A program made the translations under genes and the position numbers. A stretch of 64,000 nt of DNA. Origin: Meloidogyne chitwoodi (taxonomy: Eukaryota > Nematoda > Chromadorea > Rhabditida > Meloidogynidae). The stretch is from contig JACZZP010000005.1 of assembly GCA_015183035.1 (NCBI GenBank), positions 1,674,001 to 1,738,000 of the forward strand. Reading direction: 5' to 3'. This document shows, piece by piece, positions 10,751 to 22,406 of this stretch (the stretch's first letter is position 1; the number at the start of each line of letters is the position of its first letter). The notes beneath the pieces are model-generated. The model saw only the letters and a list, made by a program, of their open reading frames with translations. It did not search any database and was not told the DNA's origin.

Positions 10751-10755
10751 TCAAT
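10751..10755. repeat. Left target-site duplication of the LTR element
   Basis: TCAAT immediately before the 5' LTR, matched by TCAAT immediately after the 3' LTR at 22402-22406. A 5-bp duplication is typical of Ty3/Gypsy-type integrases. Confidence 0.85.
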
Positions 10756-11009
10756 TGTTATATCAAAAGTGATTTAACAGTTGTCTAATATAATTACCCC
10801 TTTAAAAGAAAAATAAAGATTGGCCAATCCACTCATTCTAAAAGAATTTAAGCTATATCCTTTTTATTTCCCAATCGCTTTGTTATAAAATTGTGCTAAA
10901 TAAATAAATAGTTAATAAAGTCTTTATTATTTGGTTAGGACACGTCCGACCGGGTCCCTCACGGGAAACGGTCGGACCCAATGTCCTATAACACACCAAA
11001 AATATAATA
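10756..11009 (+). repeat. 5' LTR
   Basis: A 254-bp repeat starting TGTTATATC and ending ATATAATA; the ends form an imperfect 8-bp inverted repeat. It contains AATAAA words near 10811 and 10914 (possible polyadenylation signals) and a strong GC-rich hairpin at 10944-10977. It matches 22148-22401 with no difference I can find. No promoter element can be assigned with confidence. Confidence 0.95.
10944..10977. promoter_or_regulatory. GC-rich hairpin inside the LTR
   Basis: Perfect 9-bp arms GTCCGACCG and CGGTCGGAC surround a loop that itself contains the pairing GGTCCC/GGGA words. It is the only GC-rich stretch of the LTR and is repeated in the 3' LTR at about 22336-22369. In RNA it would lie near the transcript ends, so a packaging, dimerisation or 3'-end-processing role is possible; this is inference. 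Confidence 0.6.
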
Positions 11010-11027
11010 TGGAGGTCCTATGGATAA
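11010..11027 (+). other. Putative tRNA primer-binding site
   Basis: The sequence directly after the LTR starts TGGAGGTCCTATGG. A TGG complementary to the universal tRNA CCA end, placed exactly at the LTR boundary, is the usual minus-strand primer position. The specific tRNA was not identified. Confidence 0.65.
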
Positions 11028-11555
11028 TTTTTTTGAACCCCAAAATGTAAATGTAAAAATTTAATTTTAAAATTTCAAATATTTTAATTAATAATACTAC
11101 GAGTGCACTCGCGTTTAATATTTACAATTTTATTTTCATAAAACTATTTATAAATTATATTTAAATATACTTAATATCACATGTTATTTTCTAAATAATC
11201 TTTTAATTTATAAATAAAATTTTTAAACTGACTCTCTAATAATAAAAATATTTTTAATATTTACGTTTTATTGTTTTATTTTGAGTTAAAAATTCTTTTC
11301 ATAAACAATAATTATAAAAATATGGTTAAGTTATTGTTAATTTTTCCCCTCTTTTCATATTTAATATAACTTTTATAATCACTCGTAAATATATAAATAT
11401 CAGCTGTCATGTATTTGGTCTGCTCTTAAATTTTAATACTTGTATAAGCTATATTTTTCGCCCACGTATTAAATTAACATTTATTCAACAAATAATGCTT
11501 ATATAACAAATAACAAATGCTTGATTTATTTTAATAAAATAACAATTTAAAGAGA
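11028..11555. other. Leader of the LTR element, no coding seen
   Basis: AT-rich leader between primer-binding site and the antisense ORF. On the minus strand an AATAAA word near 11523-11530 lies just downstream of the antisense stop codon and could polyadenylate an antisense transcript. Confidence 0.5.
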
Positions 11556-11911
11556 TTAAACGGCCGAAATAACAAATTCCGGTTTCAAATTAAATTTTGG
11601 AACAAGCTTTTTAACAGGTACTTTCTTCGGACTTCGGAGCAGTAGTTTTTTCAATTTCAAATAAATAATAAAAAGGGTGAGGAACAAAAGGATGAGGAGA
11701 ACAATTTGAAGGAAATTAAAAAAATGAATAAAGTAGATGTGCTCAACAACTGTGAAGTAATTGGAGCCAGAAGATACTGAAGTATGGGGCCGAGATGTTA
11801 ACAAAATAGTTGGTTGGTACGCATTACAGATGATTGGATTGTCCCACTCAATTAAAGACCAACAAGATGTACTACAATTTATTGTATTCGGACAGTCGAT
11901 AAGTTCAAACT
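11556..11911 (-). CDS. Antisense membrane-protein ORF in the element leader (hypothetical)
   Basis: On the minus strand a reading frame opens after a good splice acceptor (TTTTAG at 11912-11917). It runs to a stop at 11556-11558. It encodes a cysteine-rich segment with five Cys (starting FELIDCPNTINC, with a CW pair), a Ser/Thr-rich stretch, one strong transmembrane segment (QIVLLILLFLTLFIIYL) and a lysine-rich tail. That is the layout of the C-terminal end of a type I membrane glycoprotein. An internal Met at 11804 would still give 82 residues, but the upstream in-frame part looks coding. An AATAAA follows the stop. I do not recognise the family. The upstream exon, if any, was not found, so it could also be a fragment of an unrelated gene caught by the element. 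Confidence 0.45.
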
Positions 11912-12651
11912 CTAAAATTTTCAGAAATTAATAAAAATACAAATTAATAAAAATTTTTTAATTTTAAATAAAATCACAAATACAAAAACACAAAAATACA
12001 AAAATATAAATTTACAAAATATATTTAAAATATAATATTTAATTAAAAATTAAACTACAAAATAACAAAACACAAATTTATATTTTTAATTTTAGGCAAT
12101 TAGTCAGATCAAAATCCATTTCTATTTTTAGGGCCCCTCTTAAATATTTAAGCTTAATCTTATGCTTAAAATAAATTAAATTAATTATAAAAATATTCTT
12201 ACTTAATGGGGTAAGAAAATAAAAGATAAATTCACGTGAATAAATAAATAAAGAGAGTGATCGTCTTTCGTTAGCTGGCCAGTGGCGTCTGACAACTAAT
12301 CACATATAATATACATAAATAGAAGGATTTAGAAAAACTAAACGCCTAATAAATTAACAACTAAAAATAAATTTTTAGATTAATTATTTAATTAAACTAC
12401 AATCACATTATTTTCTTAAAATAAATATTTTATTAGCAACTAAAAATAATTTCTTCATTAAACTACAAATATTAAATTTATTTATATATTAACAGCAAAA
12501 TAAATAAACAAAAACTTATTTGATTAAAACAAATATTTTTCTTCAACAACAAAATAAAAATTTTTAATTAAAACTGGAAACTTCTGAAGAGGAACTTTTC
12601 ACAGCCGACGAGGAAGATCCGAGTCCAGCAAGAAGAACGCGCCAACAAACA
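11912..12651. other. Leader of the LTR element, second half
   Basis: AT-rich DNA before the gag start. A plus-strand acceptor-like TTTTTAATTTTAG occurs near 12084-12096 and a minus-strand donor-like GTAAGA near 12194-12199, so leader introns on either strand are possible. Nothing else recognised. Confidence 0.4.
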
Positions 12652-15600
12652 ATGGAAGAAATAAAACAAAAAATAACAGATTTGGAAAAGGACTTAGTAA
12701 AAATAGGAATAAGTAATTCTTCACAAGGATTACCACTACCTGAGTATTATGGAGGAAGTGAGGATTTCGAGATGTATTTAAGGAAGTTTAATAAATTAGC
12801 GACTGCTCACCAGTGGTCGGCGGCCAGAAGTACACAAATTTTGCCCTTATATTTAATTGAGGAAGCGCGAGCGATCTATGATTCATTGGATGGGGATACC
12901 AGAAGCACTTGGAAAACTCTTACAGATGCTTTAGCTTTAAAATTAAAAAAATTAAATTCGAAGGAGGCGGCGCGACGTGTATTATCAAATAGAAAACAAA
13001 ATCTAAAAGAATCAATTCTTGAATATGCGCAAGCGATCAGAGGATTAATTAACAAGTCTTTCCCTGAAAATTCTTTTATACAGATTAGAGGCGAGACTCC
13101 TGAAGCACGAACAGAACGAATAAAAAACTGGCGTGATGATATTGCTAAAGATTATTTCAGAAATGGATTAAGGATGGAAATAAAGGAAAGACTCGCTTTT
13201 TGCCCCACTAATTCTATGGAAGAAACGATCAGCCAAGCTAAAGAAATTGAGGAAATTCAAAATGCACTAAAAGAGGATAAAAGTCGGCTGTACCAAAATA
13301 ATTTATCTGAAAAGGCTTTAATAGAAGTAAATGCTGTTCGAGCCGAAGTTAATGCTATTAAGGAACAATTTGAACAAAAACGTGCACCTCAACAACAGAA
13401 TTGGCGAAGTGGTCAAAATAACTGGAATAGACGTGGAAATTTTCCCCAACGAAATAATTGGTACCAGAAGAGGAATGCTGAGGGAAAAGGGGGATTTTTT
13501 GGACAAAGTAAAATAAATTATCAGAATAATAATTGGAAAGGAAACTTTAATAATCGGGGAAGTGGTTTTCAAGGAAGATGGGGACAAAGAAGAGGATCTG
13601 GAGCATTTAATTCTAATAGAATCCCGATAACGAATCAAAGGAATTTTGAGTCTGGAGCAGCTCCATCAACTTCAGCACGCATAAGTAGTTTAACAATGCC
13701 ATTTATTACAATAATGATGGTATTAATTGCATTTTTGCCGGGAACTTTGTCTCAATATCAAATATGCCCGAGGGATAAAATAGGAGTTCCAGTAGATTTT
13801 CCGATGCCACAAGACTGCGAATTGCCACAATCACAAAGAGTAGAAATAAAGGATGTAAAATTATTTTTACCGAAATTAGTGCCTCGTTATTTTACTATTT
13901 ATCGATGTTGGATTGAAAAATATGAACAATGTACTGACTCGTTTTTAAAAATTTTTACAGAAGAGTTACAACCAAAAATTGAAAGAACTTTAAGTACACC
14001 TAATATTTGTTGGCAAATGACTAAAGATTTAAGGCTAACTAGATTTAATGAGGTTACGTGGAAAACTTCTAATCCTATTAAAACTGAATATTCTTGGATG
14101 GGAAAAAATTGTGTAAAAGGAAGAAATTTCTTTTTAGAGGAAGGAGAAGGAGCAATAATTAATAAAAAGATAGAAACAACTTTTGGAGTGTCAAAAACAT
14201 TAAAAAAGCATGAAATGAATGGTTCTTTTGAGGATCATGAGAAGGCAGTATCGGTCATAATTTGGAAGGCGCCATCTGAGGAATATATTTATACACATTA
14301 TCCGTATGGTCCAACACAAGCTGAAATATTTTATAAAAATAATTCTAGAATAGGATTAGTAAAAATTGAAGAGTTGGAATACGTTTTCTCTCCGTTAGAA
14401 AACCAAACAAGGAGTTTAGATATTTTAGGCGTTCCAGAAAATGCATGGCTGATGGATAATGATATTTTAATAGAAATTCAGGAAACTTCAGATAAAAATG
14501 TTCAAAAAAGGCAAGTTCAAAAGAAACAAAATTTTAGAAGAACAACGACTACACCTATTCCTACAACTACTAAACCAAAATTAATAACTACAACAACAAT
14601 AAATCCATTATTAGCTAAAACAACAACTCGTCCATTATTAACAACAAAACAACCAATTTTAACAACAAAATCGCCAAATAAATTAATAAACATAAATTCT
14701 ATGCCAGCAGGCCCAAATGATCAACAATCTAATTTAAATTATTTAAAAGAAGACCCAGGTCCTCCTGGACCAAAAGGACAGCCTGGAATACCAGGGCAGA
14801 AAGGAAATACGGGTTTTTCAGGTTCACAAGGAAGGCCAGGAATGAATGGACAAAATGGCTTAGACGGATTTCCAGGATCACCCGGGCTAAAGGGAGCAAA
14901 AGGAGACACAGGAAAGACAGGGATTGAAGGAGTACCAGGAATTAATGGACAACAGGGAGCAGATGGATTACCAGGATTACCCGGGATGCAAGGATCAAAA
15001 GGAGACCGAGGAAGTCCAGGTAATGAAGGAGTACCAGGAAGGGATGGACAAAATGGCGCTGATGGACTACCGGGATTACCCGGGCTGCAAGGACTAAAAG
15101 GAGATCGTGGAACTCCTGGAATAAATGGAAAAGATGGCTTACCCGGACCTAAAGGCGAACCAGCATATTTTGATACAAATTTTAATATTAATATTCCTCC
15201 CAATGTTAAACGTGAACTTTTTGATCTAGAAGAAGAACAAAGAGTAAGAGATAAGATAATGGAGGAAAATCATAGAAAAAGTCGTTTAAATTATCTGTCA
15301 TGGGAGGAAGCACAAGCTAGGGATGAAATTATGAGAAAGCAATGGATGGACTCGTGTCAAACGAAGAATCATCAACTTGAAGTTGCAAAAATTTTGGCAG
15401 AACAAAACCCTAAGGGAGCAGCTAGATTATTATATGGACGAGATGATATTACTGCTTTCTTAGAAAAAGATATTCAATTAAGATGGACGATTAGTTTATG
15501 TACCCCAGTGGAAATTGAGGAAATTATTTGGAATCAGAAAATTGATGAAAAATGTTTTGAATTTCTACCTATAAAAATTAAAGGGAAAATTCTATTTGCG

Positions 15601-18600
15601 GCCCCAGGAAGCCCAGATTTGATTTTTGAATCAAAAATATTATCTTGCGAAAAATTGAAAATGGTAGTAAATCAAACAAAAATTTTGGATTTTGATCAAC
15701 AGAAACATGCCTTAAGAATTAAACCATTAATTGATAATAAAACTGGAATTCTTTTTAAAGCAGGAAATATTTTTGAGAAGGAAAAATCGGAAACTAAAGA
15801 TCTTCAAAAATTTTCAGATTTAATTCACCAGCAAGTTATGAGCCTTCCGGATGATATTCAACAACAAGATGTTGAGGAAATTTTTGCGGGAATTTTTGAA
15901 CCGAATAAAATATTAGAAGATACAGGAAATTTGACGTTGGAAGTAATACAAAGTATAAAGGATACTATGAACACAGGAATGGAAAAAGGTAAAGAAGTAG
16001 CCGAAAATATTCACGAAAAAGGAAGTGAAATAATTTCTGAAACTAAAAATTTTATTAATGAAAAATGGACAATGATGGAAAGATTATATTGGATTTTGAT
16101 ATCTTTCGCTATATTATCTGCACTGACAATAATTTTATATTTATTCTGGAAATTTCGTATTATTTTCACATTAATCTGGAAAGGAATTAGAATTGGAAGA
16201 TCAATAGCTAGGATATTTTTCTTAAAAAATAAGAAAGAAAATGCTAAAGGGAACGAAATAAAAATTGCGGCGGTTGAATTGGATGAATTGAATCCAGGAC
16301 CTTCAGCACCACAACTGGATCAATTGGAGGAAAAGGCGTACATTTTAGATTATATTCCTTCAATTTGTACAGTAAAAAGTCGAAAAAGATGTTATGTTGA
16401 AGTAATTTTAGAAGGAAAAATACAGAAAGCTCTAATTGATTGCGGCGCAGATATTTCTTATTGCGGGCAGTCAGTAGCCAAGAAATGTGATATGAAAATT
16501 ACTCCTGGAGACGTACCTATGGCATGGGCAGCAAACTCAACACCAATAGTATTTTTAGGATCTGCGATGGCAATCATTGAATTTGGAGACTCAAAATTAC
16601 GATGGCCATTTTTAATTTCTGAAGATGAAGCTTGCCCAGGAGGATTAGTAATTGGAACTGATTTAATGGAAGAAAAAGAACAAATTCATTTAAATTTTAG
16701 AAATAAAACTATACAATTAGGAGAGGATTTATTGCCAATGATAGCCGCTATGGATCATGTTGAATCGTCAAAAAGACAAATTGAAGTGCGACTATTAAAT
16801 AATCATGTTTTGCCACCTAGATCTGATTCTTTTGTGTGGGGAACGGTTAATAAAAGCTTTGATCCATCGGAAGAATTTTTAGTTGAAGAATGGGAGAAAC
16901 ATGAATATTGGCCATTAAAAATAGGAAAAACTTTATCAAAACCAGGATCATCACGACAAATTCCCTTACGTTTATTAAATTTCGGAAATTCGCCTATTCG
17001 TATTTATGCAAAATCAAGAGTTGGAATTTTGGAGCCAATTAGTCGCGAGGAAAATAAATTAAATTCAATTGAAATGTTTAAAAGAAAAGATGAATATGTT
17101 TCACCAGAAGTGGATTGGGAAAATGAATTACCGAAATTACCAGATTCTGAGGATAAAAATAAAAAGATTTCTGAAAAATTAAATTTACAGGGTACTGTAT
17201 TATCTGAGGAAGGAATTCGGGATTTAAAAAAATTAGTTGATGATAATAAGGAAGCCTTCGTTACTTCAGATGGAATAATTGGACTTTATAAAGGAAAAAT
17301 TGTACATCAAATTGAATTAGAACCAGGAACGCGTCCAATACAACAGAGGCCTTATACTATCCCTCACGCCCTCAGGGAAGAAGTAGAAAAACAAATTAAG
17401 GAAATGTTGAAGCAGAATATTGTTAAACCATCGTCATCAGCATGGGCATCACCTATAGTACTTGTAAAAAAAGCTGATAAAAAATCTTGGAGATTCGCTG
17501 TTGATTATAGAGCGCTAAATAAATGTACAAAAAAACAAACTTATCTTTTACCTAGGATTCAGGATTTACTTGACGTAGTAGGAGGAAAAAGCTTATTTTC
17601 TATTTTTGATTTACAAAGTGGATTTCATCAAGTAAAAATGGATAAAAAGCACACTGAAAGAACAGCTTTTATTACACATTGTGGATTGTATGAATTTTTG
17701 AGACTTCCATTTGGACTCGCAGGAGCACCCCACACCTTTCAGAAGGTGATGGAGGAAATTAGGCAACAACTTTCTAGAAGCTTTTTAGTATATTTGGATG
17801 ATGTAATTTTGGGAAGTCAATCAGAAAAGGAACATTTAAATGATCTAAAAGCTTTCTTAAGTGTGATGTGTGAAGTAGGAATGAAATTAAGAGCTGAAAA
17901 ATGCAGATGGGGATGCGCGGAAATTCGTTACTTAGGATTTTTAATTTCAGAAAAAGGCGTAAGAATGGATGACAGTGATTTGAGGCCAATACTTACAATA
18001 AAGAAACCTGAAAATTTGGCAGAATTACGATCTTTAATTGGAATGTTTAGTTATTTCAGACGCTTTATTCGAGGATTTGCGGAAATTATGGCCCCCATTT
18101 ATGACTTAACTAAAAAGGAATCTACACGAGCATGGACTGAAAAACATGATAAAATTCTGGAAGAAATGAAATCAAGATTAACTTCAGCCCCAATCTTAGC
18201 GACACCACGTTTTGGAAAACCTTTTATTTTGGAAACTGATGCTAGTTGTACTGCAATTGGAGCATGCCTTCTACAAGAAAATAATCAGAAGGAAATTCAC
18301 CCTATAGCTTTTTATTCTAGAACATTAAATAAACATGAGAAAAATTATAGTGTTGTGGAGTTAGAAGCATTGGCTCTTGTTTCCGCTCTAAAACAATTTC
18401 GAATTTATTTGGAAGGAGCAGGAACATCCACAGTAATAACAGATAATTCGGCGCTGACTTCTCTTTTTCGCCGAAAAGATCTTCAGGGAAGATTAGCTCG
18501 TTATCAAATTGTACTACAAGCTTTTGATGTTAATATAATTTATAGACCAGGAAAATTTAACAAGGTAGGCGATCATCTTTCAAGGTACCCACCTGAAGAG

Positions 18601-20937
18601 GAAATGCAAATTAAATCTTTGGAGTTAAAGGATAAAATTTCGATTGAGCAAATAATTGAAGGACAAAATCAAGACCAGGAAATTAATTCACTTTGCCTGG
18701 AGGAAGATGAAAATATTCAAAAAATAAACGGAATAATTTATAAAAAATTTAAAAATGATTGGAAAATTTTAATACCAAAGGATTTAAAAAATAAAATTAT
18801 TACAGAGTTTCATGAGGATCCCCTCCAAGGAGCACATTTAGGATTGCAGAGAACTCTTGAAAAAATAAAACGAACAATGCATTGGAAGGGAATGTCAAAT
18901 GATATTTTAGATAAAATACGTATTTGTGAAGTTTGCCAAAAAAGAAAAGTGGTCGGAAAACATTTGAGTCGAGAGGAGATTTGTCCTATTGAACCAGCAT
19001 CAAGACCTTTTGATAGAATAAACTTAGACTTGTTGGGACCCATTCAAAAATCAATGCGAGGATACCAATATATTTTTGTGGCTGTGGACTCATTTAGTAA
19101 ATGGGCCATAACAGTACCGATCAGAACTCAGACCGCAAGCACAATTAGCGATATTTTTATAAAGGAAATAATATGCCGATTTGGAATACCTTCCCTAGTT
19201 ATTACAGATCAGGGCACGCAGTTTATGTCAACAACATTTCAGGATCTAGCTAAAATTCTTAATTTTCGTCATCAACCTACAACTGCCTATCATCAATCTG
19301 CAAATGGTCTTGTAGAGCGTTTCAATAGAACTTTAGCTGATATGATAGCGACGTGTACTGATCAAGGGAAAAATTGGATCGAAACACTTCCCCATGTTAC
19401 TTTTGCTTATAATACTTCTTATAATGGACAAGTAAAAAATTCACCCTTTTTCATAATTCATGGATTTCTTCCAAAATTGCCTACTGAAGCTGCATTAGGA
19501 ATAGGAAGAGAAAAATTTGAGGATATGAATGTTTACGTAAAAAGACTGATTGAAAATTTAGAAATAGTTAGAAAGGATGTCAAGACACGCCTAGAGGATT
19601 GTGTTAATGTAATGAAAGACCAACAAATTAAAATAAATAAAAAGGAATGGGAAAAAGGAGATAAAATTCTAGTACGAAAAATGGAAAATATTAAAAAATT
19701 TGGTGAAAGATTCGATGGCCCTTTTGAAATTATTAAGGTTGAAACCCCAAATTTATTAATTTCTGAATCAGGAAATGAATTGGGTTCATGGTTAGTTCAT
19801 ATGGATAGATGTAAACATTTCTTTACACCCGAAAAAGATGATGTTAGGAAATTGAGGAATAAAATTGTTGATGATAACAATATAGAAAGTTCGGATGAGG
19901 AATTGGATGATTTTATTAACATAAACGCTATCACTAACGAGTTGAATTTGTCTAACACTCTAACTAATGATACTAATGAAATAAATAAAATAAATGAAAA
20001 AGATTTTAATAATAATAAAAAATTTCAGGAAAGTGAAATGTCTGACTCAGAAATTTCTATAATAGATACTATTAATAACGACAATAATATTACACTTCCA
20101 TGGCACTTTGAGAAGGTATCATCGCCTGAAATTTCAGATGAAGAAGAGCGATTGATTCCAATGACTAGTGCTGAATTGAAGAAAAAGAAGAAGGAGAAAA
20201 AGGAGGAGAAAATATTGAATAAGGAAAAACAACAACGGATTAATAAAGCCCAGAGAAGAGGTGAAGAGATTGGAAAGAAATTGTTAAATAAAAACGATCA
20301 GGACAAGGATGACGTGGACTGGGAATTGTCAGCCCAAACACGCCGTATTAGAAGAAAATATGAGGATGACATATGCCAAAAGGATAAGTTAATATGGAAG
20401 GACATACTTGAACGGGGAGATAAGCTTCAAAGTAAAATACAAGAAAGGATGGACAAGGAAATAAGAGAAATAAAGGATAAATTAAAAAGAAAGTATGAGC
20501 AGAATAACGACTTCAAAAAGTATGCAAAACGAATCGTGGAAAGAGCAGAAAAAGATAAACAAGAAGACTTGGTTCCTGAGAAGCTACCTCTCGAGAAAGA
20601 AGTATTCTTAGTGGAAAAGAAAAAAGAAGAGGAAGGAAAAGTGTGGATAGGTCGACGGATGCGGACTAGACAGTCCGAATTTGATAGTAATATAGTTGGT
20701 AGGGGCATAAAAAATACTTATTCGATTTCTCCGGTGAGAAATCGCCCCTGTTATGTGGATGAAAAGGAGAAGCTGGATAAGCTACAAAAAAAGGAAAAAA
20801 TAAAAGAAGGGGAAAAGTTAAAAATCGAAAAGAAAGATGCGAGCACAAATACAGTCATAAGTTCAATAGTATTGGATCGAATCTTTGAAAATTTAGAGGA
20901 GATAAAAGAATTCCTCATGATGAAACCAACAAAATGA
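12652..20937 (+). CDS. Gag-glycoprotein/collagen-Pol polyprotein (2761 aa)
   Basis: Single ORF. Residues 1-230: helical gag/capsid-like region. About 240-335: Asn/Gly/Arg-rich basic nucleocapsid-like region without a CCHC zinc knuckle. 347-368: internal hydrophobic signal. 369-1190: env-like module with collagen (see separate entries). About 1240-1345: retropepsin with LIDCGADIS and a later VIGTDLM. About 1560-1770: reverse transcriptase with FAVDYRALN, DLQSGFHQV and YLDDV (Asp pair near 1716). About 1858-1980: RNase H with ETDAS, VVELEAL and TDNSAL. About 2053-2095: HHCC integrase domain. Core integrase with NLDLLG, TDQGTQF and GLVERFNRTL, the last Asp and Glu separated by 35 residues. 2300-2761: highly charged Lys/Glu tail of unknown role. 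No frameshift or stop separates gag from pol, so processing must rely on proteases. The Met at 12652 is the first in frame and starts a plausible gag helix. Confidence 0.95.
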   Translation: MEEIKQKITDLEKDLVKIGISNSSQGLPLPEYYGGSEDFEMYLRKFNKLATAHQWSAARSTQILPLYLIEEARAIYDSLDGDTRSTWKTLTDALALKLKKLNSKEAARRVLSNRKQNLKESILEYAQAIRGLINKSFPENSFIQIRGETPEARTERIKNWRDDIAKDYFRNGLRMEIKERLAFCPTNSMEETISQAKEIEEIQNALKEDKSRLYQNNLSEKALIEVNAVRAEVNAIKEQFEQKRAPQQQNWRSGQNNWNRRGNFPQRNNWYQKRNAEGKGGFFGQSKINYQNNNWKGNFNNRGSGFQGRWGQRRGSGAFNSNRIPITNQRNFESGAAPSTSARISSLTMPFITIMMVLIAFLPGTLSQYQICPRDKIGVPVDFPMPQDCELPQSQRVEIKDVKLFLPKLVPRYFTIYRCWIEKYEQCTDSFLKIFTEELQPKIERTLSTPNICWQMTKDLRLTRFNEVTWKTSNPIKTEYSWMGKNCVKGRNFFLEEGEGAIINKKIETTFGVSKTLKKHEMNGSFEDHEKAVSVIIWKAPSEEYIYTHYPYGPTQAEIFYKNNSRIGLVKIEELEYVFSPLENQTRSLDILGVPENAWLMDNDILIEIQETSDKNVQKRQVQKKQNFRRTTTTPIPTTTKPKLITTTTINPLLAKTTTRPLLTTKQPILTTKSPNKLININSMPAGPNDQQSNLNYLKEDPGPPGPKGQPGIPGQKGNTGFSGSQGRPGMNGQNGLDGFPGSPGLKGAKGDTGKTGIEGVPGINGQQGADGLPGLPGMQGSKGDRGSPGNEGVPGRDGQNGADGLPGLPGLQGLKGDRGTPGINGKDGLPGPKGEPAYFDTNFNINIPPNVKRELFDLEEEQRVRDKIMEENHRKSRLNYLSWEEAQARDEIMRKQWMDSCQTKNHQLEVAKILAEQNPKGAARLLYGRDDITAFLEKDIQLRWTISLCTPVEIEEIIWNQKIDEKCFEFLPIKIKGKILFAAPGSPDLIFESKILSCEKLKMVVNQTKILDFDQQKHALRIKPLIDNKTGILFKAGNIFEKEKSETKDLQKFSDLIHQQVMSLPDDIQQQDVEEIFAGIFEPNKILEDTGNLTLEVIQSIKDTMNTGMEKGKEVAENIHEKGSEIISETKNFINEKWTMMERLYWILISFAILSALTIILYLFWKFRIIFTLIWKGIRIGRSIARIFFLKNKKENAKGNEIKIAAVELDELNPGPSAPQLDQLEEKAYILDYIPSICTVKSRKRCYVEVILEGKIQKALIDCGADISYCGQSVAKKCDMKITPGDVPMAWAANSTPIVFLGSAMAIIEFGDSKLRWPFLISEDEACPGGLVIGTDLMEEKEQIHLNFRNKTIQLGEDLLPMIAAMDHVESSKRQIEVRLLNNHVLPPRSDSFVWGTVNKSFDPSEEFLVEEWEKHEYWPLKIGKTLSKPGSSRQIPLRLLNFGNSPIRIYAKSRVGILEPISREENKLNSIEMFKRKDEYVSPEVDWENELPKLPDSEDKNKKISEKLNLQGTVLSEEGIRDLKKLVDDNKEAFVTSDGIIGLYKGKIVHQIELEPGTRPIQQRPYTIPHALREEVEKQIKEMLKQNIVKPSSSAWASPIVLVKKADKKSWRFAVDYRALNKCTKKQTYLLPRIQDLLDVVGGKSLFSIFDLQSGFHQVKMDKKHTERTAFITHCGLYEFLRLPFGLAGAPHTFQKVMEEIRQQLSRSFLVYLDDVILGSQSEKEHLNDLKAFLSVMCEVGMKLRAEKCRWGCAEIRYLGFLISEKGVRMDDSDLRPILTIKKPENLAELRSLIGMFSYFRRFIRGFAEIMAPIYDLTKKESTRAWTEKHDKILEEMKSRLTSAPILATPRFGKPFILETDASCTAIGACLLQENNQKEIHPIAFYSRTLNKHEKNYSVVELEALALVSALKQFRIYLEGAGTSTVITDNSALTSLFRRKDLQGRLARYQIVLQAFDVNIIYRPGKFNKVGDHLSRYPPEEEMQIKSLELKDKISIEQIIEGQNQDQEINSLCLEEDENIQKINGIIYKKFKNDWKILIPKDLKNKIITEFHEDPLQGAHLGLQRTLEKIKRTMHWKGMSNDILDKIRICEVCQKRKVVGKHLSREEICPIEPASRPFDRINLDLLGPIQKSMRGYQYIFVAVDSFSKWAITVPIRTQTASTISDIFIKEIICRFGIPSLVITDQGTQFMSTTFQDLAKILNFRHQPTTAYHQSANGLVERFNRTLADMIATCTDQGKNWIETLPHVTFAYNTSYNGQVKNSPFFIIHGFLPKLPTEAALGIGREKFEDMNVYVKRLIENLEIVRKDVKTRLEDCVNVMKDQQIKINKKEWEKGDKILVRKMENIKKFGERFDGPFEIIKVETPNLLISESGNELGSWLVHMDRCKHFFTPEKDDVRKLRNKIVDDNNIESSDEELDDFININAITNELNLSNTLTNDTNEINKINEKDFNNNKKFQESEMSDSEISIIDTINNDNNITLPWHFEKVSSPEISDEEERLIPMTSAELKKKKKEKKEEKILNKEKQQRINKAQRRGEEIGKKLLNKNDQDKDDVDWELSAQTRRIRRKYEDDICQKDKLIWKDILERGDKLQSKIQERMDKEIREIKDKLKRKYEQNNDFKKYAKRIVERAEKDKQEDLVPEKLPLEKEVFLVEKKKEEEGKVWIGRRMRTRQSEFDSNIVGRGIKNTYSISPVRNRPCYVDEKEKLDKLQKKEKIKEGEKLKIEKKDASTNTVISSIVLDRIFENLEEIKEFLMMKPTK
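13687..16233 (+). other. Env-like membrane glycoprotein module inside the polyprotein
   Basis: Residues about 346-1194. A hydrophobic stretch (MPFITIMMVLIAFLPG, from 349) ending LSQ resembles a signal peptide with its cleavage site. Then comes a domain with Cys in CPRDK, QDCEL, YRCW, EQCTD, NICWQM and KNCVKG, with NxS/T sites. A KR-containing basic site is followed by a Thr/Pro mucin-like stalk (about 626-690), then collagen, then a second domain with Cys in DSCQ, SLCTP, EKCFEF and LSCEKL and further NxT sites. An amphipathic helical stretch precedes a transmembrane segment (WILISFAILSALTIILYLF, about 1146-1166) and a basic cytoplasmic tail. Paired Cys domains, glycosylation sites, signal and anchor suggest a surface glycoprotein. 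I cannot match it to a named viral glycoprotein family by eye. Confidence 0.7.
14758..15162 (+). other. Collagen triple-helix domain, 45 Gly-X-Y repeats
   Basis: Residues 703-837 are 45 consecutive Gly-X-Y triplets without interruption (starting GPPGPKGQPG, ending GPKGEP), rich in Pro at X and Y and in Lys/Asp/Glu. That is enough to form a stable trimeric collagen rod of roughly 40 nm. No Cys lies inside the helix. The DNA shows near-repeats of GGATTACCAGGATTACCCGG-type units, so the array probably grew by internal duplication. Nematode cuticle collagens are one possible source, but their flanking Cys clusters are absent here. The long minus-strand ORF over this segment is a by-product of the repeat. 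Confidence 0.93.
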
Positions 20938-22147
20938 GAGAAGAATTAAAAAGGAAGATTGTAAATATTTTAAATCAGGATTAACAACATATAAAAATAA
21001 AAATAAATAAAAATATATAAAATAATAAAAATACAAAAACATTAATATAATCAACAATAATTAATTTTAAATAACTAACAAATAAATAGTCTATTACTTA
21101 ACCAATTCTAAAAATTTATTTTACTATTCAATACTTATAATAAAAATAATAAAACAACAAATTATCCACTTAAAATTAAAATATTTTCTAATTACAATCA
21201 TCAACAAATATTCAAATATAATAAACAACAAACACAATCAATAACTAACAATAAAATATATTTGATTTCTCACTAAAAATACAAATATTTAATAAAAATA
21301 TTAAAAATAAAATATTCTCTGATGTCTTATTATTAGAGATCGGATTTTTAGTTTTCCTAATTAATATTAATCAACAGAATATAATAAATAACAAATATTT
21401 AAAAAGAAATTTAAATAAACTTTTTAAAATGTTAATATTACTTAAAACGTCTAAAGAAAATAATTTGGACAACAACAACAAATAAAATATTTAAAATAAA
21501 AATATTTGTTAATTAAAAATAATTTCTTTCATTAAAAAATTTTATTACCTTCAACACCCGAGGCTATACAATTCGTTTCAAAAATTAGCATCAAAATAAT
21601 CAACAACATATTTTGAAGAATTAAATTAACTTACAAAAATAATAAATTTAATAGAAATAAAATATTTTATGAGGAAGAAAATAAAGCTAATCAATTTTAT
21701 TAAAGTTGGATTTTTAATAAATTAAATGAAGATGGAAAAGCTAAAAACTTATTTTTCCTTTTTTTTCCCTATTTTGTGCAGGTGGCACTGTCAAAAGTTT
21801 TGGGCCGCTTTCTTTTGTTTGATTGCTCGCTACTTTACTTTTGCTTGGCCGATAATTAAAAGAATTAAAAAGGCTTGGAAAAGAATTTTAAAATGTTTTT
21901 AATTTGGCTTCTCTTCCCAAATTTCGATTTTGCTGCTGCTGGTATTACTTTTAATCAATCTTTTATTGATATTATATATTACAATGGATGTTCAACAAAC
22001 AGAAAAATAAATAAAATAAAAGAGAATCATTTGATAATTTTCATAGTCATATGTAACCCCTAAACAAAGTGCGCCTTTAGGCTTAACCTAATTTAAATTT
22101 ATATTTCAAAAATAAGCGCGGGGCGCGCTTTATTTGGAGGGCCGGTA
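20938..22147 (+). other. 3' region of the LTR element with possible small spliced ORFs
   Basis: AT-rich to 21720, then less AT-rich. A strong acceptor (pyrimidine tract ending TTTTGTGCAG near 21770-21780) is followed by a frame ending in a hydrophobic segment plus a basic tail (KRIKKAWKRILKCF, stop near 21899). Overlapping it, an ORF at 21875-22063 has a signal-peptide-like start (MFLIWLLFPNFDFAAAG). A GGAGGG purine word at about 22136-22141, six bases before the 3' LTR, is the best polypurine-tract candidate. A palindromic GCGCGGGGCGCGC lies at 22116-22128. Whether any subgenomic transcript uses these is unknown. Confidence 0.4.
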
Positions 22148-22401
22148 TGTTATATCAAAAGTGATTTAACAGTTGTCTAATATAATTACCCCTTTAAAAG
22201 AAAAATAAAGATTGGCCAATCCACTCATTCTAAAAGAATTTAAGCTATATCCTTTTTATTTCCCAATCGCTTTGTTATAAAATTGTGCTAAATAAATAAA
22301 TAGTTAATAAAGTCTTTATTATTTGGTTAGGACACGTCCGACCGGGTCCCTCACGGGAAACGGTCGGACCCAATGTCCTATAACACACCAAAAATATAAT
22401 A
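22148..22401 (+). repeat. 3' LTR
   Basis: 254 bp, identical to 10756-11009 by eye, including the GC-rich hairpin and the TGTTATAT/ATATAATA ends. Confidence 0.95.
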
Positions 22402-22406
22402 TCAAT
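22402..22406. repeat. Right target-site duplication of the LTR element
   Basis: TCAAT directly after the 3' LTR, matching 10751-10755. Confidence 0.85.

What the first reader, a model, noticed from the sequence alone, without database searches (positions are those of the whole stretch)
13687..16233. Glycoprotein-like module with a collagen rod sits between gag and pol in one polyprotein
Seen: one 2761-codon frame encodes gag, then signal segment, Cys-rich domain, Thr/Pro stalk, 45 Gly-X-Y triplets, second Cys-containing domain and transmembrane anchor, then protease-RT-RNase H-integrase. Known: retroviral and errantiviral env genes lie after pol and are made from spliced RNA. A membrane glycoprotein embedded ahead of protease in the same frame would have to be routed to the ER co-translationally or inserted by an internal signal, leaving pol on the cytosolic side of the anchor. 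That topology is consistent: signal in, anchor out, pol cytosolic. Inference: a trimeric collagen spike could be an attachment stalk or extracellular fibre. I know of no described element with this order.
Basis: partly seen in the sequence, partly recalled or inferred. Interest (0 to 1): 0.92.

Follow-up and report, generated by a model that had tools for sequence, protein, structure and literature searches.

The report
Viral spike gene embedded inside retroelement
A root-knot nematode retroelement carries a virus-type membrane-fusion spike, fitted with a collagen rod, in the middle of its single giant protein, between capsid and enzymes, instead of after the enzymes as in retroviruses; relatives in the same genome share this layout.

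Summary
The window holds one full-length Ty3/gypsy-type LTR element (10756-22401; identical LTRs, 5-bp target duplication). One 2761-codon frame encodes Gag, a membrane glycoprotein, then protease, RT, RNase H and integrase. The glycoprotein is an envelope homologous to the chuvirus-type Monjiviricetes fusion glycoprotein (PF24664): the window copy scores below Pfam's cut-off, four of six relatives that reach this domain score above it, and Foldseek on a low-confidence model ranks chuvirus glycoproteins first, with rhabdovirus G and herpesvirus gB among its hits. The module is no one-off. Of 25 envelope loci in this genome, 11 of 11 beside a Ty3-type RT lie 5' of it and 7 of 7 beside a BEL/Pao peptidase lie 3'; 7 have no pol marker. 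The collagen rod (45 Gly-X-Y) is confined to one lineage, also found in Meloidogyne enterolobii. A P[ST]AP late-domain-like motif is kept between anchor and protease in the four close sequences read, not in more distant ones. Most likely mechanism: one polyprotein threaded co-translationally through the ER, as in flaviviruses. Splicing out of the module is not excluded. Infectivity is untested.

The parts
10751..10755 (+). target-site duplication TCAAT (5' side)
   Evidence: flanks printed; sequence
10756..11009 (+). 5' LTR
   Evidence: 100% identical to 22148-22401; these are the only two full-length matches among 8 in the genome
12652..13686 (+). Gag part of the polyprotein (Gly/Arg-rich C-terminus, no zinc knuckle reported at E <= 1)
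   Evidence: PF03732 25.5 bits, cut-off 24.1
13687..13752 (+). internal hydrophobic segment, signal-peptide-like
   Evidence: 19-aa window mean 1.92; counterpart in family 2 and clade B
13753..14505 (+). N-terminal Cys-rich ectodomain (6 Cys, 3 N-glycosylation sequons)
   Evidence: M. enterolobii P0003 matches at 71% over 38% of the module; beta-rich in the model
14506..14511 (+). Lys-Arg, possible furin/kexin-type cleavage site (family 2 has RRKR)
   Evidence: reading and alignment; cleavage not tested
14542..14721 (+). Thr/Pro-rich mucin-like stalk
   Evidence: 27- and 21-bp tandem repeats at 14580-14677
14758..15162 (+). collagen rod, 45 Gly-X-Y triplets, partly a 99-bp tandem repeat
   Evidence: TRF 14836-15104, 2.7 copies; PF01391 80.6 bits
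15163..16083 (+). C-terminal fusion ectodomain (4 Cys); PF24664-like at 15313-15657
   Evidence: 20.6 bits vs cut-off 27, 21.9 bits; relatives up to 47.1 bits
16084..16152 (+). transmembrane anchor
   Evidence: hydropathy; limits set by eye
16300..16311 (+). PSAP late-domain-like motif in the cytosolic segment between anchor and protease
   Evidence: only P[ST]AP in the four ORF pieces scanned; also in family 2, P0124 (PSAP) and P0123 (PTAP) at the same place
16396..16668 (+). aspartic protease; active-site triplet 16438-16446 reads D-C-G
   Evidence: PF13975 21.4 bits, below cut-off 28.2
17464..18498 (+). reverse transcriptase and RNase H
   Evidence: PF00078 111.9 bits, PF17919 122.2 bits, PF17917 107.8 bits
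18772..19293 (+). integrase (zinc-binding and catalytic core)
   Evidence: PF17921 61.1 bits, PF00665 51.1 bits
22148..22401 (+). 3' LTR
22402..22406 (+). target-site duplication TCAAT (3' side)

Best explanation
A lineage of Ty3/gypsy (Metaviridae-type) retroelements in root-knot nematodes carries a captured chuvirus-type, probably class III, fusion glycoprotein as an in-frame middle section of one Gag-Env-Pol polyprotein. Inferred mechanism: ribosomes make Gag in the cytosol; the internal signal then takes the chain to the ER; the ectodomain is translocated, glycosylated and, in this lineage, trimerised partly by the collagen triple helix; the anchor stops transfer; protease-RT-RNase H-integrase are made back in the cytosol. 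Signal peptidase, a furin-like enzyme and the element's protease then separate the parts. Gag (with the signal at its C-terminus), Env and Pol thus start life on the same membrane, and the P[ST]AP motif next to the anchor recruits ESCRT for budding of an enveloped particle. After cleavage at Lys-Arg the stalk and collagen rod (about 39 nm if fully folded; 0.286 nm per residue recalled) would stand at the N-terminus of the fusion subunit as an attachment stalk. Shown: frame, order, homology, recurrence, constraint on the amino-acid sequence, motif conservation among close relatives. Inferred: ER routing, cleavage, trimerisation, budding, cell-to-cell transfer.
For: One open frame with two hydrophobic segments in the right places. 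PF24664 over the cut-off in 4 of 7 proteins (P0122, the L006 piece of the same family, P0123, P0124) and 2 of 7 (P0127, P0128); in the genome 12 matches, 8 over the cut-off, 0 in the 14 control genomes. Clade A and B envelopes match by hhalign, probability 96.5, E 7e-10. BFVD Foldseek: 32 matches at E <= 0.001, the first three from chu-named viruses, with rhabdovirus G and herpesvirus gB further down. Position census: 11 of 11 Ty3-type loci 5', 7 of 7 BEL/Pao-type loci 3'. Five family 2 copies have LTR pairs 99.6-100% identical; clade B element C7b has 421-bp LTRs 99.8% identical: recent mobility. pN below pS in three envelope comparisons (.188/.854.341/.706.475/.754). P[ST]AP in 4 of 4 close sequences that reach that place. 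M. javanica P0123 and the unnamed P0124 join the same domain to a protease.
Against: The window's own PF24664 score is below the cut-off (20.6 and 21.9 vs 27), as are P0125, P0126, C7b and C8; C3 and C25 do not match. The structure model is poor (mean pLDDT 45.3, pTM 0.31) and query-normalised TM-scores are 0.06-0.15 with large rmsd, so class III is a lead, not a demonstration. A 1:1:1 Gag:Env:Pol ratio is unusual for a budding virus. The window's protease triplet is D-C-G, so this copy may not process itself. The P[ST]AP motif is absent from C25 and from the five clade B env-protease pieces. pS is near or at saturation, so no exact dN/dS. Clade B elements C11 and C7b have a stop before or within pol, C3 a frame break. 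No RNA or protein data.
Confidence: 0.66

Rival explanations
1. Alternative splicing: the module is removed from some transcripts so that Gag-Pol is made without it, and Env is made from a separate spliced RNA; the single frame is a by-product.
For: Cer1 of C. elegans makes an accessory protein from a 5-exon spliced RNA (PMC10309623, section 9). An acceptor-like CTTCAG ends at 13675, just before the signal segment, and TTTTGTGCAG at 21781 after pol; GTRAG donors occur at 12758 (early gag) and 15244. Splicing would solve the stoichiometry problem.
Against: No donor-like site of 8 of 9 or better anywhere in the element and none of 7 of 9 between 12236 and 15020, where a donor at the end of gag would be needed; the 3' acceptor has no counterpart in the one family 2 element examined. 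A spliced-out module need not keep one frame through gag and pol, yet four family 2 copies, C12 and C8 do. A consensus scan is weak evidence in a nematode.
Confidence: 0.24
2. The glycoprotein is real and maintained but is not used for infection: it anchors particles to membranes or acts inside the germ line, as a retained relic of a former virus.
For: No evidence of extracellular particles was available; Cer1 is abundant inside germ cells (PMC10309623, section 4); the C25 relative has a reduced module with signal and anchor.
Against: Cysteines, sequons, a basic cleavage-type site and, among close relatives, the P[ST]AP motif are kept, with pN below pS.
Confidence: 0.15
3. Ribosome skipping (2A-like) at N-P-G-P, 16291-16302, separates Env from Pol.
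For: The window reads LDELNPGP between anchor and protease.
Against: Not found at this place in family 2, P0123 or P0124; the upstream residues do not fit the D-[VI]-E-x-NPGP consensus (recalled).
Confidence: 0.04
4. A host collagen or receptor gene, or an assembly error, was inserted once into one copy.
For: Only one full copy of the collagen-bearing family exists in this genome.
Against: M. enterolobii P0002 has partial Gag, the N-domain and collagen, and P0004 Gag, N-domain and collagen, in one predicted protein; the collagen-free sister family has the same flanking domains.
Confidence: 0.01

Closest known systems
Anakin (BEL/Pao element with chuvirus glycoprotein, mosquitoes; PMC7642597, passages read)
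   Same: LTR retroelement with a captured chuvirus-type glycoprotein
   Different: Anakin is BEL/Pao and this is Ty3/gypsy; here the glycoprotein lies between Gag and protease in the same frame. BEL/Pao elements of this very genome keep it 3' of the peptidase. I did not see in the passages where Anakin's glycoprotein lies.
Errantivirus / gypsy-type insect endogenous retroviruses (recalled)
   Same: Metaviridae pol with an envelope
   Different: Envelope after pol, from a spliced RNA (recalled); envelope likely from a baculovirus (PMC12440569, passage); here position and envelope family differ.
Cer1 of C. elegans (PMC10309623, sections 4, 6, 9 read)
   Same: nematode Ty3/gypsy element with an extra protein
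   Different: The extra ORF follows pol, is spliced, and encodes a nuclear RNA-export factor that does not resemble an envelope.
Atlas virus (hookworm, PMC9094657: search listing and abstract start only) and Tas (named in a PMC7642597 passage)
   Same: nematode element with a captured RNA-virus envelope (phlebovirus type)
   Different: Different envelope class; their gene order (Env after pol) is recalled, not read.
Flavivirus and alphavirus polyproteins (recalled)
   Same: works like: capsid first, internal signal, glycoprotein, anchor, then cytosolic enzymes (flavivirus)
   Different: unrelated genomes; analogy of topology only, not membership

Membership tests
Ty3/gypsy (Metaviridae) | RT, RNase H and integrase of Ty3 type in order PR-RT-RH-IN with LTRs | tested here: met
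   none of the 32 PF05380 (BEL/Pao peptidase) matches lies in the element; RT groups with other strong RVT_1 loci
Retrovirus / errantivirus genome plan | env located 3' of pol | tested here: not met
   module lies between Gag and protease
Chuvirus-type (Monjiviricetes) fusion glycoprotein, PF24664 | profile match over the curated cut-off | tested here: inconclusive
   window 20.6/21.9 bits, below 27; its homologue P0122 (family 2; C-domain E 2e-40) 32.0, P0123 33.5, P0124 27.6, L006 piece 32.5; P0125 23.3 and P0126 25.4 below
Class III fusion proteins (rhabdovirus G, gB) | class III fold | tested here: inconclusive
   Foldseek lists chuvirus G, rhabdovirus G and gB, but the model is poor and TM-scores low; PDB fold search not run, machine busy
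Collagen triple helix | long uninterrupted Gly-X-Y with Pro in Y | tested here: met
   45 triplets, 16 Pro in Y, 3 in X; PF01391 80.6 bits
ESCRT late domain (P[ST]AP) | conserved motif in a presumed cytosolic segment | tested here: met
   4 of 4 close sequences that reach the place (window, family 2, P0123, P0124); not in C25 nor in five clade B pieces
ESCRT late domain (P[ST]AP) | binding to Tsg101 and need for budding | not testable with these tools
   -
2A ribosome-skipping peptide | D-[VI]-E-x-NPGP, conserved in relatives | tested here: not met
   LDELNPGP in the window only
Anakin-type element | BEL/Pao pol | tested here: not met

The most novel reading that the evidence does not exclude
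Root-knot nematodes harbour a family of genuinely infectious, enveloped Ty3-type viruses that express capsid, class III fusogen and replication enzymes as one flavivirus-like polyprotein threaded through the ER membrane, budding by a P[ST]AP late domain; one branch has turned the cleavage-site loop of its fusogen into a trimeric collagen spike about 39 nm long.
Probability: 0.38. Interest if true: 0.94.

Novelty: new variant of a known kind. Interest (0 to 1): 0.87.

Why it matters
Retrovirus genomes are taught as gag-pol-env with Env made from its own spliced RNA. A group of elements that keeps a fusogen in the middle of the Gag-Pol frame shows another way of expressing an envelope in reverse-transcribing elements. 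It also makes a testable case of how a polyprotein can cross the ER membrane and still deliver reverse transcriptase to particles. That the same glycoprotein family sits 5' of RT in Ty3-type and 3' of the peptidase in BEL/Pao elements of one genome is a natural comparison of two capture routes. The collagen rod would be, as far as I recall, the first in a retroelement envelope. A 2023 survey found no clear evidence of chuvirus-type glycoprotein capture by Gypsy elements (PMC10084718, passage).

Tried and rejected
Led nowhere: N-domain search against proteins of about 956-3041 aa (1351 candidates, none at E <= 0.01). Two scans of viral contigs with the clade B and clade A alignments: 194 and 45 pattern matches, none a relative. 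PDB sequence searches: P0122 gave two weak rows, one named sortase B; the A4 profile one designed protein; the A3 profile 24 rows, mostly proteases because A3 runs into the protease, plus Arp2/3 subunit rows. The collagen part flooded the first protein search (3300 matches, 120 listed, nearly all collagens after the first three), so the envelope was searched again with the collagen-free relative (4 matches). PDB fold search not run: machine busy. LTR search in the 12 other RT stretches found pairs in 5 (C30, C7b, C7c, C10, C29), so for C12, C11, C8, C3, C25, C2 and C23 no LTRs were seen within about 9.9 kb.

Considered and rejected: single host-gene insertion; 2A skipping; a small 3' exon after 21781 as a general part (absent from the family 2 element examined). 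The internal Met of the signal segment as a general start was rejected because family 2 has none there. Whether clade A and clade B captured the envelope once or twice was left open: the RT tree needs 2 changes and the two module-less elements C2 and C23 join clade A with only 87/90 support.

Of 43 RT rows I entered 20 (two adjoining C8 rows merged), leaving out 23 weak ones; 22 of these 23 lie beside a BEL/Pao peptidase match. All 32 PF05380 rows were entered. Of 54 rows I dropped the 42 collagen-only rows. Adjoining pieces were merged to 25 envelope loci: 11 Ty3-type, 7 BEL/Pao-type, 7 without a pol marker within 8 kb. The RT tree used one of the five family 2 copies.
Full report
WHAT IS THERE. 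The window is part of contig C26 of a 47.48-Mb genome in 30 contigs. The closest proteins to the module are from Meloidogyne enterolobii (51-71% identity over 38-60% of it) and, for the second family, M. javanica (76%), so the host is a root-knot nematode; M. chitwoodi is a guess from recalled assembly size and the N50 of 2.3 Mb quoted in PMC12002905 (passage). The element runs from 10756 to 22401, with 254-bp LTRs that are identical and a TCAAT duplication. Of 8 LTR matches in the genome two are full-length; the others are a 97%-identical piece of 78 bases and five pieces of 92-98 bases at 81-84%. Degraded Gag pieces lie on C11 at 97% and 93%. Thus there is one recent full copy.

THE FRAME. 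ORF 12652-20937 encodes 2761 aa. Pfam on four pieces gives Gag, collagen, protease (below cut-off), RT, RNase H and integrase in the order Gag - module - PR - RT - RH - IN. The module has exactly two strongly hydrophobic segments, one at its start and one near its end, and the gag and pol pieces have none. Ten cysteines fall 6 + 4 into the two globular parts. Between them lie a Lys-Arg site, a Thr/Pro stalk and 45 Gly-X-Y triplets with 16 Pro in Y and 3 in X. Part of the rod is a 99-bp tandem repeat, 2.7 copies, so it seems to have grown by unit duplication. M. enterolobii P0002 has runs of 18 and 22 triplets and P0004 a run of 15 at its truncated end; P0003 stops before the rod.

WHAT THE MODULE IS. 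The C-terminal ectodomain matches PF24664, "Monjiviricetes fusion, viral fusion glycoprotein", at 20.6 bits, under the cut-off of 27. A second family in the same genome has the same N-domain and C-domain at about 31% and 32% identity (E 1e-36 and 2e-40) without collagen, but with a Thr-rich stalk and an RRKR site (P0122); it scores 32.0 bits, above the cut-off. Of seven proteins scanned, four passed (P0122, the L006 piece from another copy of that family, P0123, P0124), two scored below (P0125, P0126), and P0003, which ends before this domain, did not match. The family rings 12 times in the genome, 8 over the cut-off, and in 0 of 14 control genomes. AlphaFold2 on the whole module gave a poor model (mean pLDDT 45.3, pTM 0.31), with a beta-rich N-domain, a long helix at 539-573 and a beta region after it, and no structure in the stalk and rod. 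Foldseek against BFVD gave 32 matches at E <= 0.001: ranks 1-3 are glycoproteins or uncharacterised proteins of viruses named chu-related or chuvirus-like, ranks 4-5 Tacheng Tick Virus 4 and Shayang Fly Virus 3 (chuviruses as I recall), then among others rhabdovirus G proteins and herpesvirus gB at ranks 14, 16 and 22; an entomopoxvirus protein is rank 11 and an orthomyxo-like virus glycoprotein rank 29. Query-normalised TM-scores are 0.06-0.15 and many rmsd values are large, so I take the agreement of names as support for a class III-type fusogen, not as proof.

IT IS NOT A ONE-OFF. Four copies of the second family have continuous frames of 2855, 2855, 2738 and 1870 aa over the module and RT, and a fifth (C10) is interrupted. 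The five copies have LTR pairs 99.6-100% identical; around the C2 fragment no LTR pair was seen. Looking at the 12 other strong RT loci, I found the pattern hydrophobic segment - 530 to 548 aa - hydrophobic segment - protease in C12, C11, C7b and C8; in C3 the signal segment lies in the preceding frame. Their modules have invariant Cys, R-T-K-R in four and K-V-K-R in the fifth (C7b), and an anchor. PF24664 scores are 47.1 (C11), 39.1 (C12), 24.7 (C7b) and 22.7 (C8), with no match for C3, which aligns with its kin at 27-33%. Clade A and clade B envelopes are homologous by profile comparison (probability 96.5, E 7e-10). The C7b element has 421-bp LTRs at 99.8%, though a stop separates its two frames. 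C25 has a short module and six RT loci (C2, C23, C7c, C10, C30, C29) show none.

POSITION CENSUS. I merged the envelope matches to 25 loci and asked for the nearest pol marker on the same strand within 8 kb (dropped rows in Tried and rejected). Eleven lie beside a Ty3-type RT, all eleven 5' of it (514-1291 bases). Seven lie beside a BEL/Pao peptidase (PF05380), all seven 3' of it (3555-4536 bases). Seven have no marker. So one glycoprotein family occupies opposite sides of pol in two superfamilies of one genome. Five of the eleven belong to families 1 and 2, four of them near-identical copies, so the number of independent lineages is smaller than the counts.

HISTORY. In an RT tree of 14 rows, the window and family 2 form a pair (96/96), with C25 next (100/99). 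In C25 only the anchor region weakly resembles clade A (hhalign probability 13.6). The five clade B elements form another group (100/99). Two elements with Gag-type zinc knuckle and pol but no module (C2, C23) join clade A at 87/90. The envelope label needs two changes on this tree; two captures at the same place, or one capture and a loss, are both possible. Envelope comparisons show pN .188 vs pS .854 (family 2 vs C2 fragment, 197 codons).341 vs .706 (C11 vs C7b, 716 codons) and .475 vs .754 (window vs family 2 C-domain, 326 codons). Synonymous sites are near or at saturation, but constraint on the protein is plain in the first two.

HOW IT PROBABLY WORKS. The simplest reading of the sequence is co-translational: cytosolic Gag, internal signal, ER-lumenal ectodomain, anchor, cytosolic Pol. 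That is the topology of flavivirus polyproteins (recalled). It would leave Gag and Pol both tethered to the membrane that carries Env. A further piece of support is P-S-A-P at 16300-16311, the only P[ST]AP in the four ORF pieces scanned. Family 2 (PSAPPEE), P0124 (PSAPPEE) and P0123 (PTAP) have it at the same place, a few residues before a conserved block, although the flanking residues vary. The rate of the motif in window ORFs of 100 aa or more is 3 in 7513 residues, the element included. This is the ESCRT-binding late-domain motif of retroviruses (recalled) and suggests budding. C25 and the five clade B env-protease pieces lack it; the C12 Gag has one.

AGAINST, AND RIVALS. Equal amounts of Gag, Env and Pol are odd for a budding particle; splicing could fix this. 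I found no strong donor: nothing at 8 of 9 or better in the whole element and nothing at 7 of 9 from 12236 to 15020, though the looser GTRAG occurs at 12758 and 15244 and acceptor-like sites at 13675 and 21781 among many. A consensus scan is weak evidence, and Cer1 shows that a nematode element can splice (PMC10309623, section 9). N-P-G-P at 16291 is not conserved and does not fit the 2A consensus. The window's protease reads D-C-G where the relatives aligned read D-T-G, so this copy may be inactive or variant. No RNA, protein or particle data were available.

LITERATURE. Ten searches of the held library (for most I saw only the listed titles and abstract starts, a part of the papers found). 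None of what I saw reports an envelope between gag and pol in an LTR element. "gag-env-pol" with "LTR retrotransposon" gave 0 papers. "between gag and pol" with envelope and retrotransposon gave 15. "collagen, retrotransposon, envelope, Meloidogyne" gave one genome paper. PMC10084718 (passages) reports no clear evidence of Jingchuvirales glycoprotein capture for Gypsy and Copia, and two nematode glycoprotein insertions flanked by simple repeats. PMC7642597 (passages) describes Anakin. PMC12440569, PMC11952523 and PMC5177903 were seen as passages. Most subscription journals are not in the library, so novelty is provisional.

VERDICT. The collagen rod is a striking elaboration of one branch. I rate it a new variant of a known kind (envelope-bearing retroelement) with a new genome plan.

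Noticed in passing
window 16438-16446: Protease active-site triplet reads D-C-G in the window element, D-T-G in family 2, P0123 and P0124.
   Followed up: partly
window 16291-16302: N-P-G-P running into the P-S-A-P motif, partly resembling a 2A peptide, not conserved in relatives.
   Followed up: yes
window 21757-21900: Strong-looking 3' splice acceptor (pyrimidine run, then TTTTGTGCAG ending at 21781) after pol, followed by a short frame ending in a basic stretch; no counterpart in the family 2 element examined.
   Followed up: partly
window 14836-15104: The collagen rod contains a 99-bp tandem repeat (2.7 copies, 80% matches).
   Followed up: partly
L034:5126-6910 (C25): A sister element has a short membrane module (signal, short ectodomain, anchor) between Gag and protease without PF24664 match; possibly a reduced envelope.
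   Followed up: partly
G000 C29:307519-313077, C23:513349-519456, C3:716946-722480, C30:2112305-2117862, C21, C1, C11: BEL/Pao elements of the same genome carry the same glycoprotein family 3' of the peptidase; at C29, C23 and C3 both matches report open frames of the same length (3037, 2653, 1988 aa), probably one frame.
   Followed up: partly
L033 Gag (C12), residues 171-174 of the piece: PSAPPY in the Gag of a clade B element, another late-domain-like motif.
   Followed up: no
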